A stretch of DNA of 64,000 nucleotides from Sacculina carcini (Eukaryota; Arthropoda; Thecostraca; Sacculinidae). The position numbers and the translations under genes are program-made. Below are positions 1 to 29,980 of the stretch, one piece after another (position 1 is the stretch's first letter; the number at the start of each line of letters is the position of its first letter). The notes under the pieces were generated by a model. It ran no database searches and was not told the DNA's origin. It worked only from the letters and a program-made list of their open reading frames with translations. The stretch is taken from NCBI GenBank assembly GCA_916048095.2, contig OU696577.1, forward strand, positions 5,256,940-5,320,939. The letters are read 5' to 3'.

Positions 1-3000
1 GATACTAGTGTATGATACACTGATACTAGTGTATGATACACTGATACTAGTGTATGATACACTGATACTAGTGTATGATACACTGATACTAGTGTATGAT
101 ACACTGATACTAGTGTATGATACACTGATACTAGTGTGTGATACACTGATACTGGTGTATGATACACTGATACTAGTGTATGATACACTGATACTGGTGT
201 ATGATACACTGATACTAGTGTATGATACACTGATACTAGTGTATGATACACTGATACTAGTGTATGATACACTGATACTAGTGTATGATACACTGATACT
301 AGTGTATGATACACTGATACTGGTGTATGATACACTGATACTAGTGTATGATACACTGATACTAGTGTATGATACACTGATACTAGTGTGTGATACACTG
401 ATACTAGTGTATGATACACTGATACTAGTGTATGATACACTGATACTAGTGTATGATACACTGATACTAGTGTATGATACACTGATACTAGTGTATGATA
501 CACTGATACTAGTGTATGATACACTGATACTGGTGTATGATACACTGATACTAGTGTATGATACACTGATACTAGTGTGTGATACACTGATACTAGTGTG
601 TGATACACTGATACTAGTGTATGATACACTGATACTAGTGTATGATACACTGATACTAGTGTATGATACACTGATACTAGTGTATGATACACTGATACTG
701 GTGTATGATACACTGATACTAGTGTATGATACACTGATACTGGTGTATGATACACTGATACTAGTGTATGATACACTGATACTAGTGTATGATACACTGA
801 TACTTGTGTGATACACTGATACTGGTGTATGATACACTGATACTTGTGTGATACACTGATACTGGTGTATGATACACTGATACTAGTGTATGATACACTG
901 ATACTGGTGTATGATACACTGATACTAGTGTGTGATACACTGATACTAGTGTGTGATACACTGATACTAGTGTGTGATACACTGATACTAGTGTATGATA
1001 CACTGATACTAGTGTGTGATACACTGATACTAGTGTATGATACACTGATACTAGTGTATGATACACTGATACTAGTGTATGATACACTGATACTAGTGTA
1101 TGATACACTGATACTAGTGTGTGATACACTGATACTGGTGTATGATACACTGATACTAGTGTATGATACACTGATACTAGTGTATGATACACTGATACTA
1201 GTGTGTGATACACTGATACTAGTGTGTGATACACTGATACTAGTGTATGATACACTGATACTAGTGTGTGATACACTGATACTAGTGTATGATACACTGA
1301 TACTAGTGTGTGATACACTGATACTAGTGTATGATACACTGATACTAGTGTGTGATACACTGATACTAGTGTATGATACACTGATACTAGTGTATGATAC
1401 ACTGATACTAGTGTGTGATACACTGATACTAGTGTATGATACACTGATACTAGTGTATGATACACTGATACTAGTGTATGATACACTGATACTAGTGTAT
1501 GATACACTGATACTAGTGTGTGATACACTGATACTAGTGTATGATACACTGATACTAGTGTGTGATACACTGATACTAGTGTATGATACACTGATACTAG
1601 TGTATGATACACTGATACTAGTGTATGATACACTGATACTAGTGTATGATACACTGATACTAGTGTGTGATACACTGATACTAGTGTGTGATACACTGAT
1701 ACTAGTGTGTGATACACTGATACTAGTGTATGATACACTGATACTAGTGTATGATACACTGATACTGGTGTGTGAGACACTGATACTGGTGTATGATACA
1801 CTGATACTAGTGTATGATACACTGATACTAGTGTGTGATACACTGATACTAGTGTATGATACACTGATACTAGTGTATGATACACTGATACTAGTGTATG
1901 ATACACTGATACTAGTGTATGATACACTGATACTAGTGTATGATACACTGATACTAGTGTATGATACACTGATACTAGTGTATGATACACTGATACTAGT
2001 GTGTGATACACTGATACTAGTGTATGATACACTGATACTAGTGTATGATACACTGATACTAGTGTGTGATACACTGATACTAGTGTATGATACACTGATA
2101 CTAGTGTGTGATACACTGATACTAGTGTGTGATACACTGATACTAGTGTATGATACACTGATACTAGTGTGTGATACACTGATACTGGTGTATGATACAC
2201 TGATACTAGTGTATGATACACTGATACTAGTGTATGATACACTGATACTAGTGTATGATACACTGATACTAGTGTGTGATACACTGATACTGGTGTATGA
2301 TACACTGATACTAGTGTATGATACACTGATACTAGTGTGTGATACACTGATACTAGTGTATGATACACTGATACTAGTGTATGATACACTGATACTAGTG
2401 TGTGATACACTGATACTAGTGTATGATACACTGATACTAGTGTATGATACACTGATACTAGTGTATGATACACTGATACTAGTGTATGATACACTGATAC
2501 TAGTGTATGATACACTGATACTGGTGTGTGATACACTGATACTAGTGTATGATACACTGATACTAGTGTATGATACACTGATACTAGTGTATGATACACT
2601 GATACTAGTGTGTGATACACTGATACTAGTGTGTGATACACTGATACTAGTGTATGATACACTGATACTAGTGTGTGATACACTGATACTGGTGTATGAT
2701 ACACTGATACTAGTGTATGATACACTGATACTAGTGTATGATACACTGATACTAGTGTATGATACACTGATACTAGTGTATGATACACTGATACTAGTGT
2801 ATGATACACTGATACTAGTGTGTGATACACTGATACTGGTGTATGATACACTGATACTAGTGTATGATACACTGATACTAGTGTGTGATACACTGATACT
2901 AGTGTATGATACACTGATACTAGTGTATGATACACTGATACTAGTGTGTGATACACTGATACTAGTGTATGATACACTGATACTAGTGTGTGATACACTG

Positions 3001-6000
3001 ATACTAGTGTATGATACACTGATACTAGTGTATGATACACTGATACTAGTGTATGATACACTGATACTAGTGTATGATACACTGATACTAGTGTGTGATA
3101 CACTGATACTAGTGTATGATACACTGATACTGGTGTGTGATACACTGATACTAGTGTATGATACACTGATACTGGTGTGTGATACACTGATACTAGTGTA
3201 TGATACACTGATACTGGTGTGTGATACACTGATACTAGTGTATGATACACTGATACTAGTGTATGATACACTGATACTAGTGTATGATACACTGATACTA
3301 GTGTATGATACACTGATACTAGTGTGTGATACACTGATACTAGTGTATGATACACTGATACTAGTGTATGATACACTGATACTAGTGTGTGATACACTGA
3401 TACTAGTGTATGATACACTGATACTAGTGTATGATACACTGATACTAGTGTATGATACACTGATACTAGTGTATGATACACTGATACTAGTGTATGATAC
3501 ACTGATACTAGTGTGTGATACACTGATACTAGTGTATGATACACTGATACTAGTGTGTGATACACTGATACTAGTGTATGATACACTGATACTAGTGTGT
3601 GATACACTGATACTAGTGTATGATACACTGATACTAGTGTGTGATACACTGATACTAGTGTATGATACACTGATACTAGTGTGTGATACACTGATACTAG
3701 TGTGTGATACACTGATACTAGTGTGTGATACACTGATACTAGTGTATGATACACTGATACTGGTGTGTGATACATTGATACTAGTGTATGATACACTGAT
3801 ACTAGTGTGTGATACACTGATACTAGTGTATGATACACTGATACTGGTGTGTGATACACTGATACTAGTGTATGATACACTGATACTAGTGTGTGATACA
3901 CTGATACTAGTGTATGATACACTGATACTAGTGTGTGATACACTGATACTAGTGTATGATACACTGATACTAGTGTGTGATACACTGATACTAGTGTATG
4001 ATACACTGATACTAGTGTGTGATACACTGATACTAGTGTATGATACACTGATACTAGTGTGTGATACACTGATACTGTTGTGTGATACACTGATACTAGT
4101 GTATGATACACTGATACTGGTGTGTGATACATTGATACTAGTGTGTGATACACTGATACTGGTGTATGATACACTGATACTGTTGTGTGATACACTGATA
4201 CTAGTGTATGATACACTGATACTAGTGTGTGATACACTGATACTAGTGTGTGATACACTGATACTAGTGTATGATACACTGATACTAGTGTGTGATACAC
4301 TGATACTAGTGTATGATACACTGATACTAGTGTATGATACACTGATACTAGTGTATGATACACTGATACTAGTGTATGATACACTGATACTAGTGTGTGA
4401 TACACTGATACTGGTGTATGATACACTGATACTAGTGTATGATACACTGATACTAGTGTATGATACACTGATACTAGTGTGTGATACACTGATACTAGTG
4501 TGTGATACACTGATACTAGTGTATGATACACTGATACTAGTGTGTGATACACTGATACTAGTGTATGATACACTGATACTAGTGTGTGATACACTGATAC
4601 TAGTGTATGATACACTGATACTAGTGTGTGATACACTGATACTAGTGTATGATACACTGATACTAGTGTGTGATACACTGATACTAGTGTATGATACACT
4701 GATACTAGTGTGTGATACACTGATACTAGTGTATGATACACTGATACTAGTGTATGATACACTGATACTAGTGTATGATACACTGATACTAGTGTATGAT
4801 ACACTGATACTAGTGTGTGATACACTGATACTAGTGTGTGATACACTGATACTAGTGTATGATACACTGATACTAGTGTGTGATACACTGATACTAGTGT
4901 GTGATACACTGATACTAGTGTATGATACACTGATACTAGTGTATGATACACTGATACTGGTGTGTGAGACACTGATACTGGTGTATGATACACTGATACT
5001 AGTGTATGATACACTGATACTAGTGTGTGATACACTGATACTAGTGTATGATACACTGATACTAGTGTATGATACACTGATACTAGTGTATGATACACTG
5101 ATACTAGTGTATGATACACTGATACTAGTGTATGATACACTGATACTAGTGTATGATACACTGATACTAGTGTATGATACACTGATACTAGTGTGTGATA
5201 CACTGATACTAGTGTATGATACACTGATACTAGTGTATGATACACTGATACTAGTGTATGATACACTGATACTAGTGTATGATACACTGATACTAGTGTG
5301 TGATACACTGATACTAGTGTGTGATACACTGATACTAGTGTATGATACACTGATACTAGTGTGTGATACACTGATACTGGTGTATGATACACTGATACTA
5401 GTGTATGATACACTGATACTAGTGTATGATACACTGATACTAGTGTGTGATACACTGATACTGGTGTATGATACACTGATACTAGTGTATGATACACTGA
5501 TACTAGTGTGTGATACACTGATACTAGTGTATGATACACTGATACTAGTGTATGATACACTGATACTAGTGTGTGATACACTGATACTAGTGTATGATAC
5601 ACTGATACTAGTGTATGATACACTGATACTAGTGTATGATACACTGATACTAGTGTATGATACACTGATACTAGTGTATGATACACTGATACTGGTGTGT
5701 GATACACTGATACTAGTGTATGATACACTGATACTAGTGTATGATACACTGATACTAGTGTATGATACACTGATACTAGTGTGTGATACACTGATACTAG
5801 TGTGTGATACACTGATACTAGTGTATGATACACTGATACTAGTGTGTGATACACTGATACTGGTGTATGATACACTGATACTAGTGTATGATACACTGAT
5901 ACTAGTGTATGATACACTGATACTAGTGTATGATACACTGATACTAGTGTATGATACACTGATACTAGTGTGTGATACACTGATACTGGTGTATGATACA

Positions 6001-9000
6001 CTGATACTAGTGTATGATACACTGATACTGGTGTATGATACACTGATACTAGTGTATGATACACTGATACTAGTGTATGATACACTGATACTAGTGTGTG
6101 ATACACTGATACTAGTGTATGATACACTGATACTAGTGTGTGATACACTGATACTAGTGTATGATACACTGATACTAGTGTATGATACACTGATACTAGT
6201 GTATGATACACTGATACTAGTGTATGATACACTGATACTAGTGTATGATACACTGATACTAGTGTGTGATACACTGATACTAGTGTGTGATACACTGATA
6301 CTAGTGTATGATACACTGATACTAGTGTGTGATACACTGATACTAGTGTATGATACACTGATACTGGTGTGTGATACACTGATACTAGTGTATGATACAC
6401 TGATACTGGTGTATGATACACTGATACTAGTGTATGATACACTGATACTAGTGTATGATACACTGATACTAGTGTGTGATACACTGATACTAGTGTATGA
6501 TACACTGATACTAGTGTATGATACACTGATACTAGTGTATGATACACTGATACTAGTGTATGATACACTGATACTAGTGTATGATACACTGATACTAGTG
6601 TATGATACACTGATACTAGTGTATGATACACTGATACTAGTGTATGATACACTGATACTAGTGTATGATACACTGATACTAGTGTATGATACACTGATAC
6701 TAGTGTGTGATACACTGATACTAGTGTATGATACACTGATACTAGTGTGTGATACACTGATACTAGTGTATGATACACTGATACTAGTGTGTGATACACT
6801 GATACTAGTGTATGATACACTGATACTAGTGTGTGATACACTGATACTAGTGTATGATACACTGATACTAGTGTGTGATACACTGATACTAGTGTGTGAT
6901 ACACTGATACTAGTGTGTGATACACTGATACTAGTGTATGATACACTGATACTGGTGTGTGATACATTGATACTAGTGTATGATACACTGATACTAGTGT
7001 GTGATACACTGATACTAGTGTATGATACACTGATACTAGTGTGTGATACACTGATACTAGTGTATGATACACTGATACTAGTGTGTGATACACTGATACT
7101 AGTGTATGATACACTGATACTAGTGTGTGATACACTGATACTAGTGTATGATACACTGATACTAGTGTGTGATACACTGATACTAGTGTATGATACACTG
7201 ATACTAGTGTATGATACACTGATACTAGTGTGTGATACACTGATACTAGTGTATGATACACTGATACTAGTGTATGATACACTGATACTAGTGTATGATA
7301 CACTGATACTAGTGTATGATACACTGATACTAGTGTGTGATACACTGATACTAGTGTATGATACACTGATACTAGTGTGTGATACACTGATACTAGTGTA
7401 TGATACACTGATACTAGTGTATGATACACTGATACTAGTGTATGATACACTGATACTAGTGTATGATACACTGATACTAGTGTGTGATACACTGATACTA
7501 GTGTGTGATACACTGATACTAGTGTATGATACACTGATACTAGTGTGTGATACACTGATACTAGTGTGTGATACACTGATACTAGTGTATGATACACTGA
7601 TACTAGTGTATGATACACTGATACTGGTGTGTGAGACACTGATACTGGTGTATGATACACTGATACTAGTGTATGATACACTGATACTAGTGTGTGATAC
7701 ACTGATACTAGTGTATGATACACTGATACTAGTGTATGATACACTGATACTAGTGTATGATACACTGATACTAGTGTATGATACACTGATACTAGTGTAT
7801 GATACACTGATACTAGTGTATGATACACTGATACTAGTGTATGATACACTGATACTAGTGTATGATACACTGATACTAGTGTATGATACACTGATACTAG
7901 TGTATGATACACTGATACTAGTGTGTGATACACTGATACTAGTGTATGATACACTGATACTAGTGTGTGATACACTGATACTAGTGTGTGATACACTGAT
8001 ACTAGTGTATGATACACTGATACTAGTGTGTGATACACTGATACTGGTGTATGATACACTGATACTAGTGTATGATACACTGATACTAGTGTATGATACA
8101 CTGATACTAGTGTATGATACACTGATACTAGTGTGTGTGATACACTGATACTAGTGTATGATACACTGATACTAGTGTATGATACACTGATACTAGTGTA
8201 TGATACACTGATACTAGTGTATGATACACTGATACTGGTGTGTGATACACTGATACTAGTGTATGATACACTGATACTAGTGTATGATACACTGATACTA
8301 GTGTATGATACACTGATACTAGTGTGTGATACACTGATACTAGTGTGTGATACACTGATACTAGTGTGTGATACACTGATACTAGTGTGTGATACACTGA
8401 TACTAGTGTATGATACACTGATACTAGTGTATGATACACTGATACTAGTGTGTGATACACTGATACTAGTGTATGATACACTGATACTAGTGTGTGATAC
8501 ACTGATACTAGTGTATGATACACTGATACTGGTGTATGATACACTGATACTAGTGTATGATACACTGATACTAGTGTATGATCCACTGATACTAGTGTAT
8601 GATACACTGATACTGGTGTGTGATACACTGATACTAGTGTATGATACACTGATACTGGTGTGTGATACACTGATACTAGTGTATGATACACTGATACTAG
8701 TGTATGATACACTGATACTAGTGTATGATACACTGATACTGGTGTATGATACACTGATACTAGTGTATGATACACTGATACTGGTGTGTGGTACACTGAT
8801 ACTAGTGTATGATACACTGATACTGGTGTGTGATACACTGATACTAGTGTATGATACACTGATACTAGTGTATGATACACTGATACTAGTGTATGATACA
8901 CTGATACTGGTGTATGATACACTGATACTAGTGTATGATACACTGATACTAGTGTGTGATACACTGATACTAGTGTATGATACACTGATACTAGTGTGTG

Positions 9001-9319
9001 ATACACTGATACTAGTGTATGATACACTGATACTGGTGTATGATACACTGATACTAGTGTATGATACACTGATACTAGTGTATGATACACTGATACTAGT
9101 GTATGATACACTGATACTGGTGTGTGATACACTGATACTAGTGTATGATACACTGATACTGGTGTGTGATACACTGATACTAGTGTATGATACACTGATA
9201 CTAGTGTATGATACACTGATACTAGTGTATGATACACTGATACTAGTGTATGATACACTGATACTAGTGTATGATACACTGATACTGGTGTATGATACAC
9301 TGATACTAGTGTATGATAC

Positions 9320-12300
9320 ATTGATACTAGTGTATGATACACTGATACTAGTGTATGATACACTGATACTAGTGTATGATACACTGATACTAGTGTATGA
9401 TACACTGATACTGGTGTATGATACACTGATACTAGTGTATGATACACTGATACTGGTGTATGATACACTGATACTAGTGTGTGATACACTGATACTAGTG
9501 TATGATACACTGATACTAGTGTATGATACACTGATACTAGTGTGTGATACACTGATACTAGTGTGTGATACACTGATACTAGTGTATGATACACTGATAC
9601 TAGTGTATGATACACTGATACTGGTGTGTGATACACTGATACTAGTGTATGATACACTGATACTGGTGTGTGATACACTGATACTAGTGTATGATACACT
9701 GATACTAGTGTATGATACACTGATACTAGTGTATGATACACTGATACTGGTGTGTGATACACTGATACTAGTGTATGATACACTGATACTAGTGTGTGAT
9801 ACACTGATACTAGTGTATGATACACTGATACTAGTGTATGATACACTGATACTAGTGTATGATACACTGATACTAGTGTGTGATACACTGATACTAGTGT
9901 ATGATACACTGATACTAGTGTATGATACACTGATACTAGTGTATGATACACTGATACTGGTGTATGATACACTGATACTAGTGTGTGATACACTGATACT
10001 AGTGTATGATACACTGATACTAGTGTATGATACACTGATACTAGTGTATGATACACTGATACTAGTGTATGATACACTGATACTAGTGTGTGATACACTG
10101 ATACTAGTGTATGATACACTGATACTAGTGTATGATACACTGATACTAGTGTATGATACACTGATACTAGTGTATGATACACTGATACTAGTGTATGATA
10201 CACGGATACTAGTGTATGATACACTGATACTAGTGTGTGATACACTGATACTAGTGTGTGATACACTGATACTAGTGTATGATACACTGATACTAGTGTG
10301 TGATACACTGATACTAGTGTGTGATACACTGATACTAGTGTATGATACACTGATACTAGTGTATGATACACTGATACTGGTGTGTGAGACACTGATACTG
10401 GTGTATGATACACTGATACTAGTGTATGATACACTGATACTAGTGTGTGATACACTGATACTAGTGTATGATACACTGATACTAGTGTATGATACACTGA
10501 TACTAGTGTATGATACACTGATACTAGTGTATGATACACTGATACTAGTGTATGATACACTGATACTAGTGTATGATACACTGATACTGGTGTGTGATAC
10601 ACTGATACTAGTGTATGATACACTGATACTAGTGTATGATACACTGATACTAGTGTATGATACACTGATACTAGTGTATGATACACTGATACTAGTGTAT
10701 GATACACTGATACTAGTGTATGATACACTGATACTAGTGTATGATACACTGATACTAGTGTGTGATACACTGATACTAGTGTATGATACACTGATACTAG
10801 TGTATGATACACTGATACTAGTGTGTGATACACTGATACTAGTGTATGATACACTGATACTAGTGTATGATACACTGATACTAGTGTATGATACACTGAT
10901 ACTTGTGTGATACACTGATACTGGTGTATGATACACTGATACTTGTGTGATACACTGATACTGGTGTATGATACACTGATACTAGTGTATGATACACTGA
11001 TACTAGTGTGTGATACACTGATACTAGTGTGTGATACACTGATACTAGTGTGTGATACACTGATACTAGTGTGTGATACACTGATACTAGTGTATGATAC
11101 ACTGATACTAGTGTGTGATACACTGATACTAGTGTATGATACACTGATACTAGTGTATGATACACTGATACTAGTGTGTTATACACTGATACTGGTGTAT
11201 GATACACTGATACTAGTGTATGATACACTGATACTAGTGTATGATACACTGATACTAGTGTATGATACACTGATAATAGTGTGTGATACACTGATACTAG
11301 TGTATGATACACTGATACTAGTGTATGATACACTGATACTAGTGTGTGATACACTGATACTGGTGTATGATACACTGATACTAGTGTATGATACACTGAT
11401 ACTAGTGTATGATACACTGATACTAGTGTGTGATACACTGATACTGTTGTGTGATACACTGATACTAGTGTATGATACACTGATACTAGTGTGTGATACA
11501 TTGATACTAGTGTGTGATACACTGATACTGGTGTATGATACACTGATACTAGTGTGTGATACACTGATACTGGTGTATGATACACTGATACTAGTGTATG
11601 ATACACTGATACTAGTGTGTGATACACTGATACTGTTGTGTGATACACTGATACTAGTGTATGATACACTGATACTAGTGTATGATACACTGATACTGGT
11701 GTATGATACACTGATACTAGTGTATGATACACTGATACTAGTGTGTGATACACTGATACTAGTGTATGATACACTGATACTAGTGTATGATACACTGATA
11801 CTAGTGTATGATACACTGATACTAGTGTATGATACACTGATACTGGTGTATGATACACTGATACTAGTGTATGATACACTGATACTAGTGTGTGATACAC
11901 TGATACTAGTGTATGATACACTGATACTGGTGTATGATACACTGATACTAGTGTATGATACACTGATACTGGTGTATGATACACTGATACTAGTGTATGA
12001 TACACTGATACTAGTGTATGATACACTGATACTAGTGTGTGATACACTGATACTGGTGTATGATACACTGATACTAGTGTATGATACACTGATACTGTTG
12101 TGTGATACACTGATACTAGTGTGTGATACACTGATACTAGTGTATGATACACTGATACTAGTGTATGATACACTGATACTGGTGTATGATACACTGATAC
12201 TAGTGTATGATACACTGATACTAGTGTATGATACACTGATACTAGTGTGTGATACACTGATACTAGTGTATGATACACTGATACTAGTGTATGATACACT

Positions 12301-15300
12301 GATACTAGTGTATGATACACTGATACTAGTGTATGATACACTGATACTAGTGTATGATACACTGATACTAGTGTATGATACACTGATACTAGTGTATGAT
12401 ACACTGATACTAGTGTATGATACACTGATACTAGTGTATGATACACTGATACTAGTGTATGATACACTGATACTAGTGTATGATACACTGATAATAGTGT
12501 GTGATACACTGATACTAGTGTATGATACACTGATAATAGTGTGTGATACACTGATACTAGTGTATGATACACTGATACTAGTGTATGATACACTGATACT
12601 AGTGTATGATACACTGATACTGGTGTATGATACACTGATACTAGTGTATGATACACTGATACTAGTGTATGATACACTGATACTAGTGTATGATACACTG
12701 ATACTAGTGTATGATACACTGATACTAGTGTATGATACACTGATACTAGTGTGTGATACACTGATACTAGTGTATGATACACTGATACTAGTGTATGATA
12801 CACTGATACTAGTGTGTGATACACTGATACTGGTGTATGATACACTGATACTAGTGTATGATACACTGATACTAGTGTATGATACACTGATACTGGTGTA
12901 TGATACACTGATACTAGTGTATGATACACTGATACTAGTGTATGATACACTGATACTAGTGTGTGATACACTGATACTGGTGTATGATACACTGATACTA
13001 GTGTATGATACACTGATACTAGTGTGTGATACACTGATACTAGTGTATGATACACTGATACTAGTGTATGATACACTGATACTAGTGTGTGATACACTGA
13101 TACTAGTGTATGATACACTGATACTAGTGTATGATACACTGATACTAGTGTATGATACACTGATACTAGTGTATGATACACTGATACTAGTGTATGATAC
13201 ACTGATACTGGTGTGTGATACACTGATACTAGTGTATGATACACTGATACTAGTGTATGATACACTGATACTAGTGTATGATACACTGATACTAGTGTGT
13301 GATACACTGATACTAGTGTGTGATACACTGATACTAGTGTGTGATACACTGATACTAGTGTGTGATACACTGATACTAGTGTATGATACACTGATACTAG
13401 TGTATGATACACTGATACTAGTGTGTGATACACTGATACTAGTGTATGATACACTGATACTAGTGTGTGATACACTGATACTAGTGTATGATACACTGAT
13501 ACTGGTGTATGATACACTGATACTAGTGTATGATACACTGATACTAGTGTATGATACACTGATAATAGTGTATGATACACTGATACTGGTGTGTGATACA
13601 CTGATACTAGTGTATGATACACTGATACTGGTGTGTGATACACTGATACTAGTGTATGATACACTGATACTGGTGTATGATACACTGATACTAGTGTATG
13701 ATACACTGATACTGGTGTGTGATACACTGATACTAGTGTATGATACACTGATACTGGTGTGTGATACACTGATACTAGTGTATGATACACTGATACTAGT
13801 GTATGATACACTGATACTAGTGTATGATACACTGATACTGGTGTATGATACACTGATACTAGTGTATGATACACTGATACTAGTGTGTGATACACTGATA
13901 CTAGTGTATGATACACTGATACTAGTGTGTGATACACTGATACTAGTGTATGATACACTGATACTGGTGTATGATACACTGATACTAGTGTATGATACAC
14001 TGATACTAGTGTATGATACACTGATACTAGTGTATGATACACTGATACTGGTGTGTGATACACTGATACTAGTGTATGATACACTGATACTGGTGTGTGA
14101 TACACTGATACTAGTGTATGATACACTGATACTAGTGTATGATACACTGATACTAGTGTATGATACACTGATACTAGTGTATGATACACTGATACTAGTG
14201 TATGATACACTGATACTGGTGTATGATACACTGATACTAGTGTATGATACATTGATACTAGTGTATGATACACTGATACTAGTGTGTGATACACTGATAC
14301 TAGTGTATGATACACTGATACTAGTGTATGATACACTGATACTGGTGTATGATACACTGATACTAGTGTATGATACACTGATACTGGTGTATGATACACT
14401 GATACTAGTGTGTGATACACTGATACTAGTGTATGATACACTGATACTAGTGTATGATACACTGATACTAGTGTGTGATACACTGATACTAGTGTGTGAT
14501 ACACTGATACTAGTGTATGATACACTGATACTAGTGTATGATACACTGATACTGGTGTGTGATACACTGATACTAGTGTATGATACACTGATACTGGTGT
14601 GTGATACACTGATACTAGTGTATGATACACTGATACTAGTGTATGATACACTGATACTAGTGTATGATACACTGATACTGGTGTGTGATACACTGATACT
14701 AGTGTATGATACACTGATACTAGTGTGTGATACACTGATACTAGTGTATGATACACTGATACTAGTGTATGATACACTGATACTAGTGTATGATACACTG
14801 ATACTAGTGTGTGATACACTGATACTAGTGTATGATACACTGATACTAGTGTATGATACACTGATACTAGTGTATGATACACTGATACTGGTGTATGATA
14901 CACTGATACTAGTGTGTGATACACTGATACTAGTGTATGATACACTGATACTAGTGTATGATACACTGATACTAGTGTATGATACACTGATACTAGTGTA
15001 TGATACACTGATACTAGTGTGTGATACACTGATACTAGTGTATGATACACTGATACTAGTGTATGATACACTGATACTAGTGTATGATACACTGATACTA
15101 GTGTATGATACACTGATACTAGTGTATGATACACGGATACTAGTGTATGATACACTGATACTAGTGTGTGATACACTGATACTAGTGTCTGATACACTGA
15201 TACTAGTGTATGATACACTGATACTAGTGTGTGATACACTGATACTAGTGTGTGATACACTGATACTAGTGTATGATACACTGATACTAGTGTATGATAC

Positions 15301-17966
15301 ACTGATACTGGTGTGTGAGACACTGATACTGGTGTATGATACACTGATACTAGTGTATGATACACTGATACTAGTGTGTGATACACTGATACTAGTGTAT
15401 GATACACTGATACTAGTGTATGATACACTGATACTAGTGTATGATACACTGATACTAGTGTATGATACACTGATACTAGTGTATGATACACTGATACTAG
15501 TGTATGATACACTGATACTAGTGTATGATACACTGATAATAGTGTGTGATACACTGATACTAGTGTATGATACACTGATACTAGTGTATGATACACTGAT
15601 ACTAGTGTGTGATACACTGATACTAGTGTGTGATACACTGATACTAGTGTGTGATACACTGATACTGGTGTATGATACACTGATACTAGTGTATGATACA
15701 CTGATACTAGTGTATGATACACTGATACTAGTGTATGATACACTGATACTAGTGTATGATACACTGATACTAGTGTATGATACACTGATACTAGTGTATG
15801 ATACACTGATACTAGTGTATGATACACTGATACTAGTGTATGATACACTGATACTAGTGTATGATACACTGATACTAGTGTGTGATACACTGATACTAGT
15901 GTATGATACACTGATACTAGTGTATGATACACTGATACTAGTGTGTGATACACTGATACTGGTGTATGATACACTGATACTAGTGTATGATACACTGATA
16001 CTAGTGTATGATACACTGATACTAGTGTATGATACACTGATACTAGTGTATGATACACTGATACTAGTGTATGATACACTGATACTAGTGTGTGATACAC
16101 TGATACTGGTGTATGATACACTGATACTAGTGTATGATACACTGATACTAGTGTGTGATACACTGATACTAGTGTATGATACACTGATACTAGTGTATGA
16201 TACACTGATACTAGTGTATGATACACTGATACTAGTGTATGATACACTGATACTGGTGTGTGATACACTGATACTAGTGTATGATACACTGATACTAGTG
16301 TATGATACACTGATACTAGTGTATGATACACTGATACTAGTGTGTGATACACTGATACTAGTGTGTGATACACTGATACTAGTGTATGATACACTGATAC
16401 TAGTGTGTGATACACTGATACTGGTGTATGATACACTGATACTAGTGTATGATACACTGATACTAGTGTATGATACACTGATACTAGTGTATGATACACT
16501 GATACTAGTGTATGATACACTGATACTAGTGTATGATACACTGATACTAGTGTGTGATACACTGATACTGGTGTATGATACACTGATACTAGTGTATGAT
16601 ACACTGATACTAGTGTGTGATACACTGATACTAGTGTATGATACACTGATACTAGTGTATGATACACTGATACTAGTGTGTGATACACTGATACTAGTGT
16701 ATGATACACTGATACTAGTGTATGATACACTGATACTAGTGTATGATACACTGATACTAGTGTATGATACACTGATACTAGTGTATGATACACTGATACT
16801 AGTGTGTGATACACTGATACTAGTGTGTGATACACTGATACTAGTGTATGATACACTGATACTAGTGTGTGATACACTGATACTAGTGTATGATACACTG
16901 ATACTAGTGTGTGATACACTGATACTAGTGTATGATACACTGATACTGGTGTGTGATACACTGATACTAGTGTATGATACACTGATACTGGTGTATGATA
17001 CACTGATACTAGTGTATGATACACTGATACTAGTGTATGATACACTGATACTAGTGTGTGATACACTGATACTAGTGTATGATACACTGATACTAGTGTA
17101 TGATACACTGATACTAGTGTATGATACACTGATACTAGTGTATGATACACTGATACTAGTGTGTGATACACTGATACTAGTGTATGATACACTGATACTA
17201 GTGTGTGATACACTGATACTAGTGTATGATACACTGATACTAGTGTGTGATACACTGATACTAGTGTATGATACACTGATACTAGTGTATGATACACTGA
17301 TACTAGTGTATGATACACTGATACTAGTGTGTGATACACTGATACTAGTGTATGATACACTGATACTAGTGTATGATACACTGATACTAGTGTGTGATAC
17401 ACTGATACTTGTGTGATACACTGATACTAGTGTGTGATACACTGATACTAGTGTATGATACACTGATACTAGTGTATGATACACTGATACTAGTGTATGA
17501 TACACTGATACTAGTGTATGATACACTGATACTAGTGTGTGATACACTGATACTAGTGTATGATACACTGATACTAGTGTATGATACACTGATACTAGTG
17601 TATGATACACTGATACTAGTGTATGATACACTGATACTAGTGTATGATACACTGATACTAGTGTGTGATACACTGATACTAGTGTGTGATACACTGATAC
17701 TAGTGTGTGATACACTGATACTGGTGTGTGATACACTGATACTAGTGTATGATACACTGATACTAGTGTATGATACACTGATACTAGTGTATGATACACT
17801 GATACTAGTGTATGATACACTGATACTAGTGTGTGATACACTGATACTAGTGTGTGATACACTGATACTAGTGTATGATACACTGATACTAGTGTGTGAT
17901 ACACTGATACTGTTGTGTGATACACTGATACTAGTGTATGATACACTGATACTAGTGTGTAATACA
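9320..17966. repeat. Higher-order duplication in the satellite, offset 4,931 bp
   Basis: Rare variant units recur at a constant spacing. A CATTGATAC variant lies at 9,320 and 14,251, a CACGGATAC variant at 10,204 and 15,135, and a GTGAGACAC variant at 10,386 and 15,317. All three pairs are 4,931 bp apart, so at least about 1.1 kb (9,320-10,386) was copied as a block to 14,251-15,317. The constant offset means no indel within the matched interval. The limits of the copied block are not resolved. Confidence 0.85.
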
Positions 17967-20900
17967 TTGATACTAGTGTGTGATACACTGATACTGGTGT
18001 ATGATACACTGATACTAGTGTGTGATACACTGATACTGGTGTATGATACACTGATACTAGTGTATGATACACTGATACTAGTGTGTGATACACTGATACT
18101 GTTGTGTGATACACTGATACTAGTGTATGATACACTGATACTAGTGTATGATACACTGATACTGGTGTATGATACACTGATACTAGTGTATGATACACTG
18201 ATACTAGTGTGTGATACACTGATACTAGTGTATGATACACTGATACTAGTGTGTGATACACTGATACTAGTGTATGATACACTGATACTAGTGTATGATA
18301 CACTGATACTGGTGTGTGATACACTGATACTGGTGTGTGATACACTGATACTGGTGTATGATACACTGATACTAGTGTATGATACACTGATACTAGTGTA
18401 TGATACACTGATACTAGTGTGTGATACACTGATACTGGTGTATGATACACTGATACTAGTGTATGATACACTGATACTAGTGTATGATACACTGATACTA
18501 GTGTGTGATACACTGATACTGTTGTGTGATACACTGATACTAGTGTATGATACACTGATACTAGTGTGTGATACACTGATACTAGTGTGTGATACACTGA
18601 TACTGGTGTATGATACACTGATACTAGTGTATGATACACTGATACTAGTGTATGATACACTGATACTAGTGTATGATACACTGATACTAGTGTGTGATAC
18701 ACTGATACTGTTGTGTGATACACTGATACTAGTGTATGATACACTGATACTAGTGTATGATACACTGATACTAGTGTGTGATACACTGATACTAGTGTGT
18801 GATACACTGATACTAGTGTATGATACACTGATACTAGTGTATGATACACTGATACTAGTGTGTGATACACTGATACTAGTGTGTGATACACTGATACTAG
18901 TGTATGATACACTGATACTGGTGTATGATACACTGATACTAGTGTATGATACACTGATACTAGTGTGTGATACACTGATACTAGTGTGTGATACACTGAT
19001 ACTAGTGTGTGATACACTGATACTGGTGTATGATACACTGATACTAGTGTATGATACACTGATACACTGATACTAGTGTGTGATACACTGATACTAGTGT
19101 ATGATACACTGATACTAGTGTATGATACACTGATACTAGTGTGTGATACACTGATACTAGTGTATGATACACTGATACTAGTGTATGATACACTGATACT
19201 AGTGTGTGATACACTGATACTAGTGTGTGATACACTGATACTAGTGTATGATACACTGATACTAGTGTGTGATACACTGATACTAGTGTATGATACACTG
19301 ATAATAGTGTGTGATACACTGATACTAGTGTATGATACACTGATACTGGTGTATGATACACTGATACTAGTGTATGATACACTGATACTGGTGTATGATA
19401 CACTGATACTAGTGTGTGATACACTGATACTAGTGTATGATACACTGATACTAGTGTATGATACACTGATACTAGTGTATGATACACTGATACTAGTGTA
19501 TGATACACTGATACTGGTGTATGATACACTGATACTAGTGTGTGATACACTGATACTAGTGTATGATACACTGATACTAGTGTATGATACACTGATACTA
19601 GTGTATGATACACTGATACTAGTGTGTGATACACTGATACTAGTGTATGATACACTGATACTAGTGTATGATACACTGATACTAGTGTATGATACACTGA
19701 TACTAGTGTATGATACACTGATACTAGTGTATGATACACGGATACTAGTGTATGATACACTGATACTAGTGTGTGATACACTGATACTAGTGTCTGATAC
19801 ACTGATACTAGTGTATGATACACTGATACTAGTGTGTGATACACTGATACTAGTGTGTGATACACTGATACTAGTGTATGATACACTGATACTAGTGTAT
19901 GATACACTGATACTGGTGTGTGAGACACTGATACTGGTGTATGATACACTGATACTAGTGTATGATACACTGATACTAGTGTGTGATACACTGATACTAG
20001 TGTATGATACACTGATACTAGTGTATGATACACTGATACTAGTGTATGATACACTGATACTAGTGTATGATACACTGATACTAGTGTATGATACACTGAT
20101 ACTAGTGTATGATACACTGATACTAGTGTATGATACACTGATAATAGTGTGTGATACACTGATACTAGTGTATGATACACTGATACTAGTGTATGATACA
20201 CTGATACTAGTGTGTGATACACTGATACTAGTGTGTGATACACTGATACTAGTGTGTGATACACTGATACTGGTGTATGATACACTGATACTAGTGTATG
20301 ATACACTGATACTAGTGTATGATACACTGATACTAGTGTATGATACACTGATACTAGTGTATGATACACTGATACTAGTGTATGATACACTGATACTAGT
20401 GTATGATACACTGATACTAGTGTATGATACACTGATACTAGTGTATGATACACTGATACTAGTGTATGATACACTGATACTAGTGTGTGATACACTGATA
20501 CTAGTGTATGATACACTGATACTAGTGTATGATACACTGATACTAGTGTGTGATACACTGATACTGGTGTATGATACACTGATACTAGTGTATGATACAC
20601 TGATACTAGTGTATGATACACTGATACTAGTGTATGATACACTGATACTAGTGTATGATACACTGATACTAGTGTATGATACACTGATACTAGTGTGTGA
20701 TACACTGATACTGGTGTATGATACACTGATACTAGTGTATGATACACTGATACTAGTGTGTGATACACTGATACTAGTGTATGATACACTGATACTAGTG
20801 TATGATACACTGATACTAGTGTATGATACACTGATACTAGTGTATGATACACTGATACTGGTGTGTGATACACTGATACTAGTGTATGATACACTGATAC

Positions 20901-22571
20901 TAGTGTATGATACACTGATACTAGTGTATGATACACTGATACTAGTGTGTGATACACTGATACTAGTGTGTGATACACTGATACTAGTGTATGATACACT
21001 GATACTAGTGTGTGATACACTGATACTGGTGTATGATACACTGATACTAGTGTATGATACACTGATACTAGTGTATGATACACTGATACTAGTGTATGAT
21101 ACACTGATACTAGTGTATGATACACTGATACTAGTGTATGATACACTGATACTAGTGTGTGATACACTGATACTGGTGTATGATACACTGATACTAGTGT
21201 ATGATACACTGATACTAGTGTGTGATACACTGATACTAGTGTATGATACACTGATACTAGTGTATGATACACTGATACTAGTGTGTGATACACTGATACT
21301 AGTGTATGATACACTGATACTAGTGTATGATACACTGATACTAGTGTATGATACACTGATACTAGTGTATGATACACTGATACTAGTGTATGATACACTG
21401 ATACTAGTGTGTGATACACTGATACTAGTGTGTGATACACTGATACTAGTGTATGATACACTGATACTAGTGTGTGATACACTGATACTAGTGTATGATA
21501 CACTGATACTAGTGTGTGATACACTGATACTAGTGTATGATACACTGATACTGGTGTGTGATACACTGATACTAGTGTATGATACACTGATACTGGTGTA
21601 TGATACACTGATACTAGTGTATGATACACTGATACTAGTGTATGATACACTGATACTAGTGTGTGATACACTGATACTAGTGTATGATACACTGATACTA
21701 GTGTATGATACACTGATACTAGTGTATGATACACTGATACTAGTGTATGATACACTGATACTAGTGTGTGATACACTGATACTAGTGTATGATACACTGA
21801 TACTAGTGTGTGATACACTGATACTAGTGTATGATACACTGATACTAGTGTGTGATACACTGATACTAGTGTATGATACACTGATACTAGTGTATGATAC
21901 ACTGATACTAGTGTATGATACACTGATACTAGTGTGTGATACACTGATACTAGTGTATGATACACTGATACTAGTGTATGATACACTGATACTAGTGTGT
22001 GATACACTGATACTTGTGTGATACACTGATACTAGTGTGTGATACACTGATACTAGTGTATGATACACTGATACTAGTGTATGATACACTGATACTAGTG
22101 TATGATACACTGATACTAGTGTATGATACACTGATACTAGTGTGTGATACACTGATACTAGTGTATGATACACTGATACTAGTGTATGATACACTGATAC
22201 TAGTGTATGATACACTGATACTAGTGTATGATACACTGATACTAGTGTATGATACACTGATACTAGTGTGTGATACACTGATACTAGTGTGTGATACACT
22301 GATACTAGTGTGTGATACACTGATACTGGTGTGTGATACACTGATACTAGTGTATGATACACTGATACTAGTGTATGATACACTGATACTAGTGTATGAT
22401 ACACTGATACTAGTGTATGATACACTGATACTAGTGTGTGATACACTGATACTAGTGTGTGATACACTGATACTAGTGTATGATACACTGATACTAGTGT
22501 GTGATACACTGATACTGTTGTGTGATACACTGATACTAGTGTATGATACACTGATACTAGTGTGTGATACA
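15135..22571. repeat. Recent higher-order duplication, offset 4,605 bp
   Basis: Markers in 15,135-17,966 recur exactly 4,605 bp later in 19,740-22,571. They are CACGGATAC (15,135 and 19,740), GTGAGACAC (15,317 and 19,922), GATAATAG (15,536 and 20,141), the 2-bp deletion unit (17,409 and 22,014) and CATTGATAC (17,966 and 22,571). The order of the A/G variants also matches over long runs, with a G/A difference seen near 17,961. At least 2.8 kb is therefore nearly identical, and the match appears to run on to about 18.37 kb against 22.97 kb. This is the youngest large duplication visible. Confidence 0.88.
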
Positions 22572-23854
22572 TTGATACTAGTGTGTGATACACTGATACT
22601 GGTGTATGATACACTGATACTAGTGTGTGATACACTGATACTGGTGTATGATACACTGATACTAGTGTATGATACACTGATACTAGTGTGTGATACACTG
22701 ATACTGTTGTGTGATACACTGATACTAGTGTATGATACACTGATACTAGTGTATGATACACTGATACTGGTGTATGATACACTGATACTAGTGTATGATA
22801 CACTGATACTAGTGTGTGATACACTGATACTAGTGTATGATACACTGATACTAGTGTGTGATACACTGATACTAGTGTATGATACACTGATACTAGTGTA
22901 TGATACACTGATACTGGTGTGTGATACACTGATACTGGTGTGTGATACACTGATACTGGTGTATGATACACTGATACTAGTGTATGATACACTGATACTA
23001 GTGTATGATACACTGATACTAGTGTATGATACACTGATACTAGTGTGTGATACACTGATACTGGTGTATGATACACTGATACTAGTGTATGATACACTGA
23101 TACTAGTGTGTGATACACTGATACTAGTGTATGATACACTGATACTAGTGTATGATACACTGATACTAGTGTGTGATACACTGATACTAGTGTATGATAC
23201 ACTGATACTAGTGTATGATACACTGATACTAGTGTATGATACACTGATACTAGTGTATGATACACTGATACTAGTGTATGATACACTGATACTGGTGTGT
23301 GATACACTGATACTAGTGTATGATACACTGATACTAGTGTATGATACACTGATACTAGTGTATGATACACTGATACTAGTGTGTGATACACTGATACTAG
23401 TGTGTGATACACTGATACTAGTGTATGATACACTGATACTAGTGTATGATACACTGATACTAGTGTGTGATACACTGATACTAGTGTGTGATACACTGAT
23501 ACTAGTGTATGATACACTGATACTAGTGTATGATACACTGATACTAGTGTGTGATACACTGATACTGGTGTGTGATACACTGATACTAGTGTGTGATACA
23601 CTGATACTAGTGTGTGATACACTGATACTGGTGTATGATACACTGATACTAGTGTATGATACACTGATACTAGTGTATGATACACTGATACTAGTGTATG
23701 ATACACTGATACTAGTGTGTGATACACTGATACTAGTGTGTGATACACTGATACTAGTGTGTGATACACTGATACTAGTGTATGATACACTGATACTAGT
23801 GTATGATACACTGATACTGGTGTATGATACACTGATACTGGTGTATGATACACT

Positions 23855-26800
23855 CATACTAGTGTGTGATACACTGATACTAGTGTGTGATACACTGATA
23901 CTGGTGTATGATACACTGATACTAGTGTATGATACACTGATACTAGTGTATGATACACTGATACTAGTGTGTGATACACTGATACTAGTGTGTGATACAC
24001 TGATACTAGTGTATGATACACTGATACTAGTGTATGATACACTGATACTAGTGTGTGATACACTGATACTAGTGTGTGATACACTGATACTAGTGTGTGA
24101 TACACTGATACTAGTGTGTGATACACTGATACTAGTGTGTGATACACTGATACTAGTGTATGATACACTGATACTAGTGTGTGATACACTGATACTAGTG
24201 TGTGATACACTGATACTAGTGTATGATACACTGATACTAGTGTGTGATACACTGATACTGGTGTATGATACACTGATACTGGTGTATGATACACTGATAC
24301 TAGTGTATGATACACTGATACTAGTGTGTGATACACTGATACTAGTGTATGATACACTGATACTAGTGTGTGATACACTGATACTAGTGTATGATACACT
24401 GATACTAGTGTATGATACACTGATACTGGTGTATGATACACTGATACTAGTGTGTGATACACTGATACTAGTGTATGATACACTGATACTAGTGTGTGAT
24501 ACACTGATACTAGTGTATGATACACTGATACTAGTGTGTGATACACTGATACTAGTGTATGATACACTGATACTGGTGTATGATACACTGATACTAGTGT
24601 GTGATACACTGATACTGGTGTGTGATACACTGATACTAGTGTATGATACACTGATACTAGTGTGTGATACACTGATACTAGTGTATGATACACTGATACT
24701 AGTGTGTGATACACTGATACTAGTGTGTGATACACTGATACTAGTGTATGATACACTGATACTAGTGTGTGATACACTGATACTAGTGTATGATACACTG
24801 ATACTAGTGTATGATACACTGATACTAGTGTATGATACACTGATACTAGTGTATGATACACTGATACTAGTGTGTGATACACTGATACTAGTGTGTGATA
24901 CACTGATACTAGTGTATGATACACTGATACTAGTGTATGTTACACTGATACTAGTGTGTGATACACTGATACTAGTGTGTGATACACTGATACTAGTGTA
25001 TGATACACTGATACTAGTGTATGATACACTGATACTAGTGTATGATACACTGATACTAGTGTGTGATACACTGATACTAGTGTATGATACACTGATACTG
25101 GTGTATGATACACTGATACTAGTGTGTGATACACTGATACTAGTGTATGATACACTGATACTAGTGTGTGATACACTGATACTAGTGTATGATACACTGA
25201 TACTAGTGTATGATACACTGATACTGGTGTATGATACACTGATACTAGTGTGTGATACACTGATACTAGTGTATGATACACTGATACTAGTGTGTGATAC
25301 ACTGATACTAGTGTATGATACACTGATACTAGTGTATGATACACTGATACTAGTGTATGATACACTGATACTAGTGTGTGATACACTGATACTAGTGTGT
25401 GATACACTGATACTAGTGTATGATACACTGATACTAGTGTATGTTACACTGATACTAGTGTGTGATACACTGATACTAGTGTGTGATACACTGATACTAG
25501 TGTATGATACACTGATACTAGTGTATGATACACTGATACTAGTGTGTGATACACTGATACTAGTGTGTGATACACTGATACTAGTGTGTGATACACTGAT
25601 ACTAGTGTGTGATATACTGATACTAGTGTATGATACACTGATACTAGTGTGTGATACACTGATACTAGTGTATGATACACTGATACTAGTGTGTGATACA
25701 CTGATACTGGTGTGTGATACACTGATACTAGTGTGTGATACACTGATACTAGTGTGTGATACACTGATACTGGTGTATGATACACTGATACTAGTGTATG
25801 ATACACTGATACTAGTGTATGATACACTGATACTAGTGTATGATACACTGATACTAGTGTGTGATACACTGATACTAGTGTGTGATACACTGATACTAGT
25901 GTGTGATACACTGATACTAGTGTATGATACACTGATACTAGTGTATGATACACTGATACTGGTGTATGATACACTGATACTGGTGTATGATACACTCATA
26001 CTAGTGTGTGATACACTGATACTAGTGTGTGATACACTGATACTGGTGTATGATACACTGATACTAGTGTATGATACACTGATACTAGTGTATGATACAC
26101 TGATACTAGTGTGTGATACACTGATACTAGTGTGTGATACACTGATACTAGTGTATGATACACTGATACTAGTGTATGATACACTGATACTAGTGTGTGA
26201 TACACTGATACTAGTGTGTGATACACTGATACTAGTGTGTGATACACTGATACTAGTGTGTGATACACTGATACTAGTGTATGATACACTGATACTGGTG
26301 TGTGATACACTGATACTAGTGTATGATACACTGATACTAGTGTATGATACACTGATACTAGTGTATGATACACTGATACTAGTGTGTGATACACTGATAC
26401 TAGTGTGTGATACACTGATACTAGTGTATGATACACTGATACTAGTGTGTGATACACTGATACTGGTGTATGATACACTGATACTAGTGTATGATACACT
26501 GATACTAGTGTATGATACACTGATACTAGTGTATGATACACTGATACTAGTGTATGATACACTGATACTAGTGTATGATACACTGATACTAGTGTGTGAT
26601 ACACTGATACTAGTGTATGATACACTGATACTAGTGTATGATACACTGATACTAGTGTATGATACACTGATACTAGTGTGTGATACACTGATACTAGTGT
26701 GTGATACACTGATACTAGTGTGTGATACACTGATACTAGTGTATGATACACTGATACTAGTGTATGATACACTGATACTGGTGTATGATACACTGATACT

Positions 26801-29485
26801 GGTGTATGATACACTGATACTAGTGTGTGATACACTGATACTAGTGTATGATACACTGATACTAGTGTATGATACACTGATACTAGTGTATGATACACTG
26901 ATACTAGTGTGTGATACACTGATACTGGTGTATGATACACTGATACTAGTGTATGATACACTGATACTAGTGTGTGATACACTGATACTAGTGTATGATA
27001 CACTGATACTAGTGTATGATACACTGATACTAGTGTATGATACACTGATACTGGTGTGTGATACACTGATACTAGTGTATGATACACTGATACTAGTGTA
27101 TGATACACTGATACTAGTGTATGATACACTGATACTAGTGTGTGATACACTGATACTAGTGTGTGATACACTGATACTAGTGTATGATACACTGATACTA
27201 GTGTATGATACACTGATACTAGTGTGTGATACACTGATACTAGTGTGTGATACACTGATACTAGTGTGTGATACACTGATACTAGTGTATGATACACTGA
27301 TACTAGTGTATGATACACTGATACTAGTGTATGATACACTGATACTAGTGTATGATACACTGATACTAGTGTATGATACAATGATACTAGTGTATGATAC
27401 ACTGATACTAGTGTATGATACACTGATACTAGTGTATGATACACTGATACTAGTGTGTGATACACTGATACTAGTGTATGATACACTGATACTAGTGTAT
27501 GATACACTGATACTAGTGTGTGATACACTGATACTAGTGTGTGATACACTGATACTAGTGTGTGATATACTGATACTAGTGTATGATACACTGATACTAG
27601 TGTGTGATACACTGATACTAGTGTATGATACACTGATACTAGTGTGTGATACACTGATACTGGTGTGTGATACACTGATACTAGTGTGTGATACACTGAT
27701 ACTAGTGTGTGATACACTGATACTGGTGTATGATACACTGATACTAGTGTATGATACACTGATACTAGTGTATGATACACTGATACTAGTGTATGATACA
27801 CTGATACTAGTGTGTGATACACTGATACTAGTGTGTGATACACTGATACTAGTGTGTGATACACTGATACTAGTGTATGATACACTGATACTAGTGTATG
27901 ATACACTGATACTGGTGTATGATACACTGATACTGGTGTATGATACACTCATACTAGTGTGTGATACACTGATACTAGTGTGTGATACACTGATACTGGT
28001 GTATGATACACTGATACTAGTGTATGATACACTGATACTAGTGTATGATACACTGATACTAGTGTGTGATACACTGATACTAGTGTGTGATACACTGATA
28101 CTAGTGTATGATACACTGATACTAGTGTATGATACACTGATACTAGTGTGTGATACACTGATACTAGTGTGTGATACACTGATACTAGTGTGTGATACAC
28201 TGATACTAGTGTGTGATACACTGATACTAGTGTGTGATACACTGATACTAGTGTATGATACACTGATACTAGTGTGTGATACACTGATACTAGTGTGTGA
28301 TACACTGATACTAGTGTATGATACACTGATACTAGTGTGTGATACACTGATACTGGTGTATGATACACTGATACTAGTGTATGATACACTGATACTAGTG
28401 TGTGATACACTGATACTAGTGTGTGATACACTGATACTGGTGTATGATACACTGATACTAGTGTATGATACACTGATACTAGTGTGTGATACACTGATAC
28501 TAGTGTATGATACACTGATACTAGTGTGTGATACACTGATACTAGTGTATGATACACTGATACTAGTGTATGATACACTGATACTGGTGTATGATACACT
28601 GATACTAGTGTGTGATACACTGATACTAGTGTATGATACACTGATACTAGTGTGTGATACACTGATACTAGTGTATGATACACTGATACTGGTGTATGAT
28701 ACACTGATACTAGTGTGTGATACACTGATACTGGTGTGTGATACACTGATACTAGTGTATGATACACTGATACTAGTGTGTGATACACTGATACTAGTGT
28801 ATGATACACTGATACTAGTGTGTGATACACTGATACTAGTGTGTGATACACTGATACTAGTGTGTGATACACTGATACTAGTGTATGATACACTGATACT
28901 AGTGTATGATACACTGATACTAGTGTATGATACACTGATACTAGTGTGTGATACACTGATACTGGTGTATGATACACTGATACTAGTGTGTGATACACTG
29001 ATACTGGTGTATGATACACTGATACTAGTGTATGATACACTGATACTAGTGTATGATACACTGATACTAGTGTATGATACACTGATACTAGTGTATGATA
29101 CACTGATACTAGTGTGTGATACACTGATACTAGTGTGTGATACACTGATACTAGTGTATGATACACTGATACTAGTGTGTGATACACTGATACTAGTGTG
29201 TGATACACTGATACTAGTGTATGATACACTGATACTAGTGTATGATACACTGATACTAGTGTATGATACACTGATACTAGTGTATGATACACTGATACTA
29301 GTGTGTGATACACTGATACTAGTGTGTGATACACTGATACTAGTGTATGATACACTGATACTAGTGTGTGATACACTGATACTAGTGTATGATACACTGA
29401 TACTAGTGTATGATACACTGATACTAGTGTATGATACACGGATACTAGTGTATGATACACTGATACTAGTGTGTGATACACTGAT
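23855..29485. repeat. Higher-order repeats near the array end (2,142, 1,953 and 504 bp)
   Basis: A unit with ACTCAT in place of ACTGAT occurs at 23,855, 25,997 and 27,950, spacings of 2,142 bp (102 units) and 1,953 bp (93 units). A GATATAC variant at 25,611 and 27,564 repeats the 1,953-bp offset. An ATGTTACAC variant at 24,937 and 25,441 gives 504 bp (24 units). This end has a different repeat length from the centre of the array, as expected from repeated local unequal exchange or slippage. Confidence 0.85.
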
Positions 29486-29980
29486 GATAGTCATAGTGTA
29501 TGAGAGATTGTTTGTGATGGCTGCTTTTGACTTCACTTTCACGGCAATGACAACTTTTCGCCACTTGTGTCCATATTCATGCAAATTTGTTGCCCTTGTC
29601 AACTCTTGATTGACTTCTGCTCCCACTCTCTAACTCCTCCTCTCTATTCCACTCTTTCTTACACACGATGAAGCACCGCTCTATCTTTCCTCTTCTCCTT
29701 CTATCACGCCGTAACCAAGATGAACAAACATGAAATGTTTGATGTATGTGTCAATAACTTTGCCTCGTGTACCGCTAAGTGTGTGTGTGTGCGTGTATGT
29801 GTGTGTGTGTGTCTGTGTGTCTGTTCTGACGTTCATTTCATGTTCTTTTTCATTGCATACACACGCACACACACACACACACACACACAAGCAAAATGCG
29901 TTTGATGTGAATGTCTGCGTATGATGTCTCCTGAGTGTTATTGCGTGACTGTCAGGATTGTGGTTGTGCCTGCTAATTTG
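29486..29980. other. Array-flanking DNA with TG and AC microsatellites
   Basis: The last satellite unit degenerates between about 29,485 and 29,505 into non-repetitive AT/CT-rich sequence. A TG-rich run lies at about 29,779-29,823 and an AC run at about 29,861-29,890, on opposite strands. No gene is seen. Confidence 0.8.

What the first reader, a model, noticed from the sequence alone, without database searches (positions are those of the whole stretch)
1..29485. Satellite variants keep RNA pairing on one strand only
Each 21-bp unit holds complementary arms ATACACT and AGTGTAT. The only two common polymorphic positions are both A-to-G changes in the AGTGTAT arm (its first base and its sixth base). 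In a plus-strand transcript each change turns an A-U pair into a G-U wobble, so the stem is kept. In a minus-strand transcript the same changes give A-C mismatches. If variants were neutral with respect to structure, they should also appear in the other arm, the spacer and as C/T changes. Inference: either selection or a strand-biased mutation process (A-to-I-like deamination in a structured RNA intermediate is one speculative route), or one ancestral pair of variants simply spread by amplification.
Basis: partly seen in the sequence, partly recalled or inferred. Interest (0 to 1): 0.72.

Follow-up and report, generated by a model that had tools for sequence, protein, structure and literature searches.

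The report
Ordinary satellite array, two spread variants
A long block of 21-letter DNA repeats carries two common spelling variants that happen to suit RNA pairing on one strand, but the pattern is close to what copying of old variants by block duplication would give, so it is most likely ordinary.

Summary
The array (window 1-29485) splits into 1,405 segments of a 21-bp unit; only two positions vary often, A14G (183 of 1,398) and A19G (477 of 1,404), both A-to-G in the AGTGTAT arm. The selection and editing inferences are weak. The evidence is two sites, not 660 copies: 21 of 210 pairs of transition sites are both plus-strand wobbles, 42 of 210 both wobbles on one strand or the other. Rarer changes occur in the other arm and spacer and include C-to-T; six arm transversion types break a pair on both strands, uncompensated. 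The array grew by block duplication. In the two youngest block pairs sites 14/19 show 1 A/G difference of 567 comparisons; three further pairs show 18 of 464 there and 0 of 4,408 elsewhere, which I read as exchange of standing variants or misaligned units, though recurrent A/G change is not excluded. Other plus-strand adenines: 1 A-to-G of 7,021. Residue: all five arm transition types seen are plus-wobbles (two-sided p = 0.06). Best reading: an ordinary single-locus satellite, mid-chromosome, whose two old variants spread by amplification.

The parts
1..29485 (+). 21-bp satellite array, 1,405 segments (first and last partial), unit ATACACTGATACTAGTGTATG; left end lost in an N stretch
14814..18402 (+). 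block pair 1, first copy (units 706-876, counted from 0)
   Evidence: 169 of 170 aligned units identical
19440..23007 (+). block pair 1, second copy (units 926-1095)
8140..10575 (+). block pair 2, first copy (units 388-503)
   Evidence: 110 of 114 aligned units identical
13113..15506 (+). block pair 2, second copy (units 625-738); its end overlaps the start of block pair 1
935..4000 (+). block pair 3, first copy (units 45-190)
   Evidence: 129 of 140 aligned units identical, 8 unit gaps, 12 base differences, all A/G at 14 or 19
4211..7192 (+). block pair 3, second copy (units 201-342)
23512..24729 (+). block pair 4, first copy (units 1120-1177)
   Evidence: 52 of 58 aligned units identical, 6 base differences, all A/G at 14 or 19
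27607..28845 (+). block pair 4, second copy (units 1315-1373)
25549..26262 (+). block pair 5, first copy (units 1217-1250)
   Evidence: 34 of 34 aligned units identical
27502..28215 (+). block pair 5, second copy (units 1310-1343)

Best explanation
This is an ordinary, most likely non-coding, 21-bp satellite found at one locus of the genome. It grew and was homogenised by tandem block duplication and unequal or conversion-like exchange. Two old single-base variants (A/G at unit positions 14 and 19) reached about 13% and 34% of units and were copied around the array with those blocks. That both sit in one arm and both are plus-strand G-U wobbles is most likely coincidence between two sites. Shown: the array, its variant table, its block copies, the copying of both variants with the blocks. 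Inferred: that A is the older base at each site, that the changes were neutral, how few origins they had, and the kind of exchange.
For: Variant table. Block copies: units 706-876 and 926-1095 are identical in 169 of 170 aligned units, 388-503 and 625-738 in 110 of 114. The T2G unit type occurs six times, each time in nearly the same neighbourhood, so probably six copies of one origin. In those two block pairs the six base differences are A3C, C12A, A1G, G21A, one A/G at 19 and one C/G at 19: 1 A/G of 567 comparisons at 14/19 and 4 differences of 5,395 elsewhere (p = 0.39 with 568 and 5,396 entered; p = 0.10 if both site-19 differences are counted). Spacing between successive G14 units favours even numbers (68 even, 52 odd after dropping later block copies; p = 0.03), a possible trace of 42-bp dimers; G19 shows no such effect (p = 0.60). 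The genome-wide count of the exact unit pattern, 1,349, equals the window's count.
Against: In the three other block pairs sites 14/19 differ in 18 of 464 comparisons and the other positions in 0 of 4,408. I read this as exchange of standing variants or alignment one unit off (some lie in adjacent units), but repeated A/G change at these two sites would give it too. All five arm transition types seen (A1G, C4T, C6T, A14G, A19G) are plus-wobbles: two-sided p = 0.06, or 0.125 for the four seen more than once. Counting transversions as possible, two common variants both being plus-wobble transitions has chance 0.011-0.045, or 0.022-0.09 for either strand, over assumed transition fractions of 0.33-0.67. 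Sites 14 and 19 are in linkage equilibrium (r2 = 0.0004); in a simple neutral block simulation r2 was under 0.001 in 4.8% of 209 common pairs, and two or more common variants arose in 0, 2 and 5 of 60 runs at three mutation rates.
Confidence: 0.8

Rival explanations
1. Selection keeps a hairpin in a plus-strand transcript of the array, so only wobble-preserving variants rise to high frequency.
For: Both common variants and all five arm transition types are plus-wobbles; A19G costs no folding energy on the plus strand and 1.6 kcal/mol on the minus strand.
Against: Arm types A1T, T2G, A3C, C6A, T7G and A19C (A3C and C6A in one unit each) break a pair on both strands, with no compensating change in the units listed; T2G stands in six block copies. 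Leaving out the two common variants, 38 changed cells fall in 14 arm positions and 12 in the 7 other positions, so arms are not better conserved. Six units lack two bases of arm 2. No Rfam family reaches its threshold in the array. No transcript data were at hand.
Confidence: 0.06
2. A strand-biased or site-specific mutation process keeps making A-to-G (or G-to-A) changes at positions 14 and 19, by A-to-I-like deamination of an RNA intermediate copied back into DNA, by transcription-linked mutation, or by another route.
For: Both common changes are A-to-G on the same strand; in three of five block pairs differences, where present, lie only at 14/19 (18 of 464); A14 lies in TAG, a context that I recall (from no call) as favoured by adenosine deaminases.
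Against: The other five plus-strand adenines show 1 A-to-G of 7,021, including A3 and A11, which share the TA context. G states at 14 and 19 are independent within a unit (r2 = 0.0004) and slightly under-represented in adjacent units (lag-1 correlations -0.05 and -0.07), though positive at lags such as 2, 6 and 16. The two youngest block pairs show 1 A/G difference of 567. C-to-T types are also present.
Confidence: 0.05
3. The array is (part of) the centromere of this chromosome, and its short dyad symmetry, not strand-specific RNA pairing, is the relevant feature. This can be true together with the best explanation.
For: The array centre lies at about 49% of a 10,683,906-bp contig that has TTAGG-type arrays at both ends; the unit has a 7-bp dyad. 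Papers on dyads and centromeres exist (search listing only).
Against: No exact match of the unit elsewhere, and with up to 3 mismatches only about as many outside the window as in the reversed control; 29 kb as assembled; no chromatin data; the mid position was noticed afterwards; middles of other chromosomes were not examined.
Confidence: 0.15
4. The array codes for a 7-residue-repeat protein and the variants reflect codon constraint (by my reading A14G is silent in the two longest open frames).
For: Open frames of 2,545 and 2,532 codons, without a start codon asked for, run through the right part of the array.
Against: A stop-free frame of a unit whose length is a multiple of three stays open by itself; 2-bp deletions in six units and two units with insertions break the frame; A19G changes the residue; no Pfam match for the longest frame.
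Confidence: 0.02

Closest known systems
Satellite DNA with block (higher-order) duplication and concerted evolution
   Same: Head-to-tail units, block copies, variants shared by copying
   Different: Four rotations or strands of the unit were not found in the papers held; only one locus found in this genome
Hammerhead-bearing satellite pDo500 of Dolichopoda cave crickets (PMC2837043; abstract and section list seen)
   Same: A satellite whose RNA structure is argued to be under selection
   Different: There, by the abstract, stems are more conserved than loops and carry compensatory changes; here neither is seen, and no ribozyme family reaches its threshold
Satellites with dyad symmetry at centromeres (titles and starts of abstracts in a search listing only, e.g. 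PMC9070824, PMC13081366)
   Same: Short dyad in the unit, mid-chromosome place
   Different: No chromatin evidence here; unit found on one contig only

Membership tests
Satellite DNA with higher-order block duplication | Long head-to-tail array of near-identical units | tested here: met
Satellite DNA with higher-order block duplication | Multi-unit blocks duplicated with the same variant pattern | tested here: met
   five block pairs above the score cut-off, identical in 169/170, 110/114, 129/140, 52/58 and 34/34 aligned units
RNA-structured satellite under selection (pDo500-like) | Stems more conserved than loops | tested here: not met
   12 substitution types in 14 arm positions, 4 in 7 other positions; without the two common variants 38 and 12 changed cells
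RNA-structured satellite under selection (pDo500-like) | Compensatory double changes in stems | tested here: not met
   none among the 25 listed unit strings; T2G keeps A19 in 6 of 6
RNA-structured satellite under selection (pDo500-like) | Known ribozyme or RNA family in the unit | tested here: not met
   the only match at gathering threshold in the window is a tRNA outside the array
RNA-edited or RNA-templated repeat | A-to-G at many adenines | tested here: not met
   1 of 7,021 at the five other adenines
RNA-edited or RNA-templated repeat | Changes clustered by molecule | tested here: inconclusive
   no clustering in adjacent units, some positive correlations at lags 2, 6 and 16, as block copying also gives
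Centromeric satellite | CENP-A chromatin on the array | not testable with these tools
   no chromatin data
Centromeric satellite | Shared by, or matched by similar arrays on, other chromosomes of the set | tested here: inconclusive
   this unit is not found elsewhere; other satellites at other chromosome middles were not looked for

The most novel reading that the evidence does not exclude
A chromosome-specific, mid-chromosome 21-bp satellite is transcribed from the plus strand, and weak selection on the hairpin of that RNA filters transitions so that only G-U-preserving ones (A1G, C4T, C6T, A14G, A19G) persist.
Probability: 0.05. Interest if true: 0.65.

Novelty: new member of a known kind. 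Interest (0 to 1): 0.15.

Why it matters
As it stands it is a worked example of how a striking pattern over hundreds of repeat copies shrinks to two sites once block duplication is accounted for. If strand-specific RNA constraint were shown, it would be an unusual case of a simple satellite whose RNA shape is selected.

Tried and rejected
Search for the unit elsewhere in the genome: exact pattern 1,349 matches, the same number as in the window. With up to 3 mismatches 1,400 forward and 1 reverse genome-wide, against 1,397 forward in the window by my own scan and 4 and 3 in the reversed-pattern control, so chance level outside; one outside place, on C1, was listed. My first pattern used 7 instead of 6 spacer bases and found 3 unrelated sites. 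Full-text search for four rotations or strands of the unit: 0 papers. Term sets on wobble and hairpin in satellites: 0 papers and 1 paper (the cave cricket one); on dyads and a 21-bp unit: 1 paper on yeast centromeres, not followed. Pfam on ten frames gave matches for two of ten: a sub-threshold GIY-YIG, and helix-turn-helix families including a sub-threshold CENP-B_N. The organism was not identified. The long open frames across the array were considered and rejected as coding. The neutral simulation is simple, started from a uniform array, ran a fixed 4,000 events, and did not tally wobble classes; the number of extra runs behind its 209 pairs was not printed. Singleton variants (A1G, A3C, C6A, G21A, G21T) could be sequencing errors. 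The parity test measured spacings across dropped blocks too. The block search stopped at a score cut-off of 60, so older block copies may be missed.

Full report
What is there. The window starts inside a 29,485-bp array of a 21-bp unit, ATACACT-GATACT-AGTGTAT-G, in one orientation. I aligned the array to the unit with a cyclic alignment: 1,405 segments, the first and last partial, 25 distinct strings. The two common changes are A14G (183 of 1,398; 11 of these also have T at 15) and A19G (477 of 1,404). No other type exceeds 11 copies. Just left of the window lie exactly 2,500 N, so the true left end is unknown.

Pairing. In single-hairpin RNA folding the consensus gives -6.4 (plus) and -5.4 (minus) kcal/mol; A14G -5.4 and -3.9; A19G -6.4 and -3.8. 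The direction of the asymmetry is as claimed, though A14G costs about 1 on the plus strand. With DNA parameters both strands weaken about alike.

How surprising is it? By the pairing rules each arm pair has one transition that makes a plus-strand G-U and one that makes a minus-strand G-U. Of 210 pairs of transition sites, 21 are both plus-wobble and 42 are both wobble on the same strand; if both sites must lie in arms the fractions are 0.23 and 0.46. Counting transversions as possible lowers the chance to 0.011-0.045 for one strand and 0.022-0.09 for either, over assumed transition fractions of 0.33-0.67. The pattern was picked out after looking, so its weight is less than these numbers suggest. 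Adding rare types, 5 of 5 arm transition types are plus-wobbles (p = 0.06; 4 of 4 without the singleton, p = 0.125). Against a protected stem, six arm transversion types (two of them seen once) break a pair on both strands and none is compensated in the listed units; without the two common variants 38 changed cells fall in 14 arm positions and 12 in the other 7.

Copies are not independent. A unit-level self-alignment found five block pairs above its cut-off. Units 706-876 and 926-1095 are identical in 169 of 170 aligned units, 388-503 and 625-738 in 110 of 114. Their six base differences are A3C, C12A, A1G, G21A, one A/G at 19 and one C/G at 19. At sites 14/19 that is 1 A/G difference (2 of any kind) of 567 comparisons, and 4 of 5,395 elsewhere; tested with 568 and 5,396, p = 0.39 for A/G and 0.10 for any kind. 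So among the youngest copies the two sites are not shown to be hot.

The result that cuts the other way. The other three block pairs show 12, 6 and 0 differences, all of them A/G at 14 or 19: 18 of 464 comparisons there and 0 of 4,408 elsewhere. The 12:0 of the third pair differs from the 1:5 of the first two pairs pooled (p = 0.0007). I read this as exchange of standing variants between units, or alignment one unit off (several differences lie in adjacent units, and the third pair has 8 unit gaps), because new mutation should also touch other positions. Repeated A/G change confined to these two sites is not excluded.

Linkage. Haplotypes at 14/19 are AA 806, AG 404, GA 117, GG 66, r2 = 0.0004. 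After dropping the spans of the later copy of each block (490 of 1,405 units dropped, 915 kept) they are AA 522, AG 263, GA 80, GG 41, again independent. This needs exchange within units or some recurrence. In a simple neutral block simulation 87% of 209 common pairs showed all four haplotypes and 4.8% had r2 under 0.001; two or more common variants arose in 0, 2 and 5 of 60 runs at three mutation rates. So the simulation allows the pattern but does not make it typical. I hold it as mildly unexplained.

Editing-like process. The five other plus-strand adenines show 1 A-to-G of 7,021, two of them (A3, A11) in the same TA context. Adjacent units are not enriched for G states (lag-1 correlations -0.05 and -0.07), though lags 2, 6 and 16 are positive for site 14 and 6 and 16 for site 19, as block copying would give.

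Setting. The exact unit pattern counts 1,349 in 264 Mb, the same as in the window; with 3 mismatches allowed the excess outside is at control level. The contig is 10,683,906 bp and the array centre lies near 49% of it, with telomere-type arrays at both ends: 116 CCTAA in the first 600 bases, 119 TTAGG in the last 600. Flanks hold open frames that look like retroelement pieces (named by eye, from no call) and weak GIY-YIG and helix-turn-helix matches. A centromeric role is possible and untested.

Verdict. Ordinary satellite; two old variants most likely spread by amplification and exchange. The strand-specific RNA idea keeps a small probability because of the five-of-five transitions.

Noticed in passing
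contig C9 of the genome, L059 and L060: The window's contig has TTAGG-type telomere arrays in its first and last 600 bases, so it is probably a whole chromosome, with the 21-bp array near its middle (about 49%).
   Followed up: partly
L057 1-1200, L058 1-1200, L063 1-600; L054, L055 1-200 (seen by eye): Five contig ends carry an 11-bp array of TTAGGTAACAC and TTAGGGCACAC variants, which contain the telomere word TTAGG; at the start of C11 (L057) its orientation is opposite to that expected of a telomere. Six of the 14 contig starts fetched are N.
   Followed up: partly
window 1-29485: Sites 14 and 19, five bases apart, are in linkage equilibrium with all four haplotypes present, which calls for exchange within units or recurrence.
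   Followed up: partly
window 1-29485: All six units with the 2-bp deletion at 14-15 and all 11 units with GT at 14-15 have G at 19 (17 of 17), where the sequence reads TGTGTG, suggestive of slippage; several are block copies of each other.
   Followed up: no
window 21992-29629: Open frames of over 2,500 codons run across the array on both strands because the unit length is a multiple of three; judged non-coding.
   Followed up: partly
window 29979-30541: A second, degenerate 14-bp tandem array (TGGTGTCGTGTCAG) lies about 500 bp right of the satellite.
   Followed up: no
window 59329-59389: Rfam reports a tRNA (34.3 bits) that ARAGORN does not; possibly a tRNA-derived repeat.
   Followed up: no
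G000:C9:5236940-5241939 and 5254440-5256939: Two N stretches of exactly 5,000 and 2,500 bases lie left of the window; assembly gap or withheld sequence cannot be told apart.
   Followed up: no
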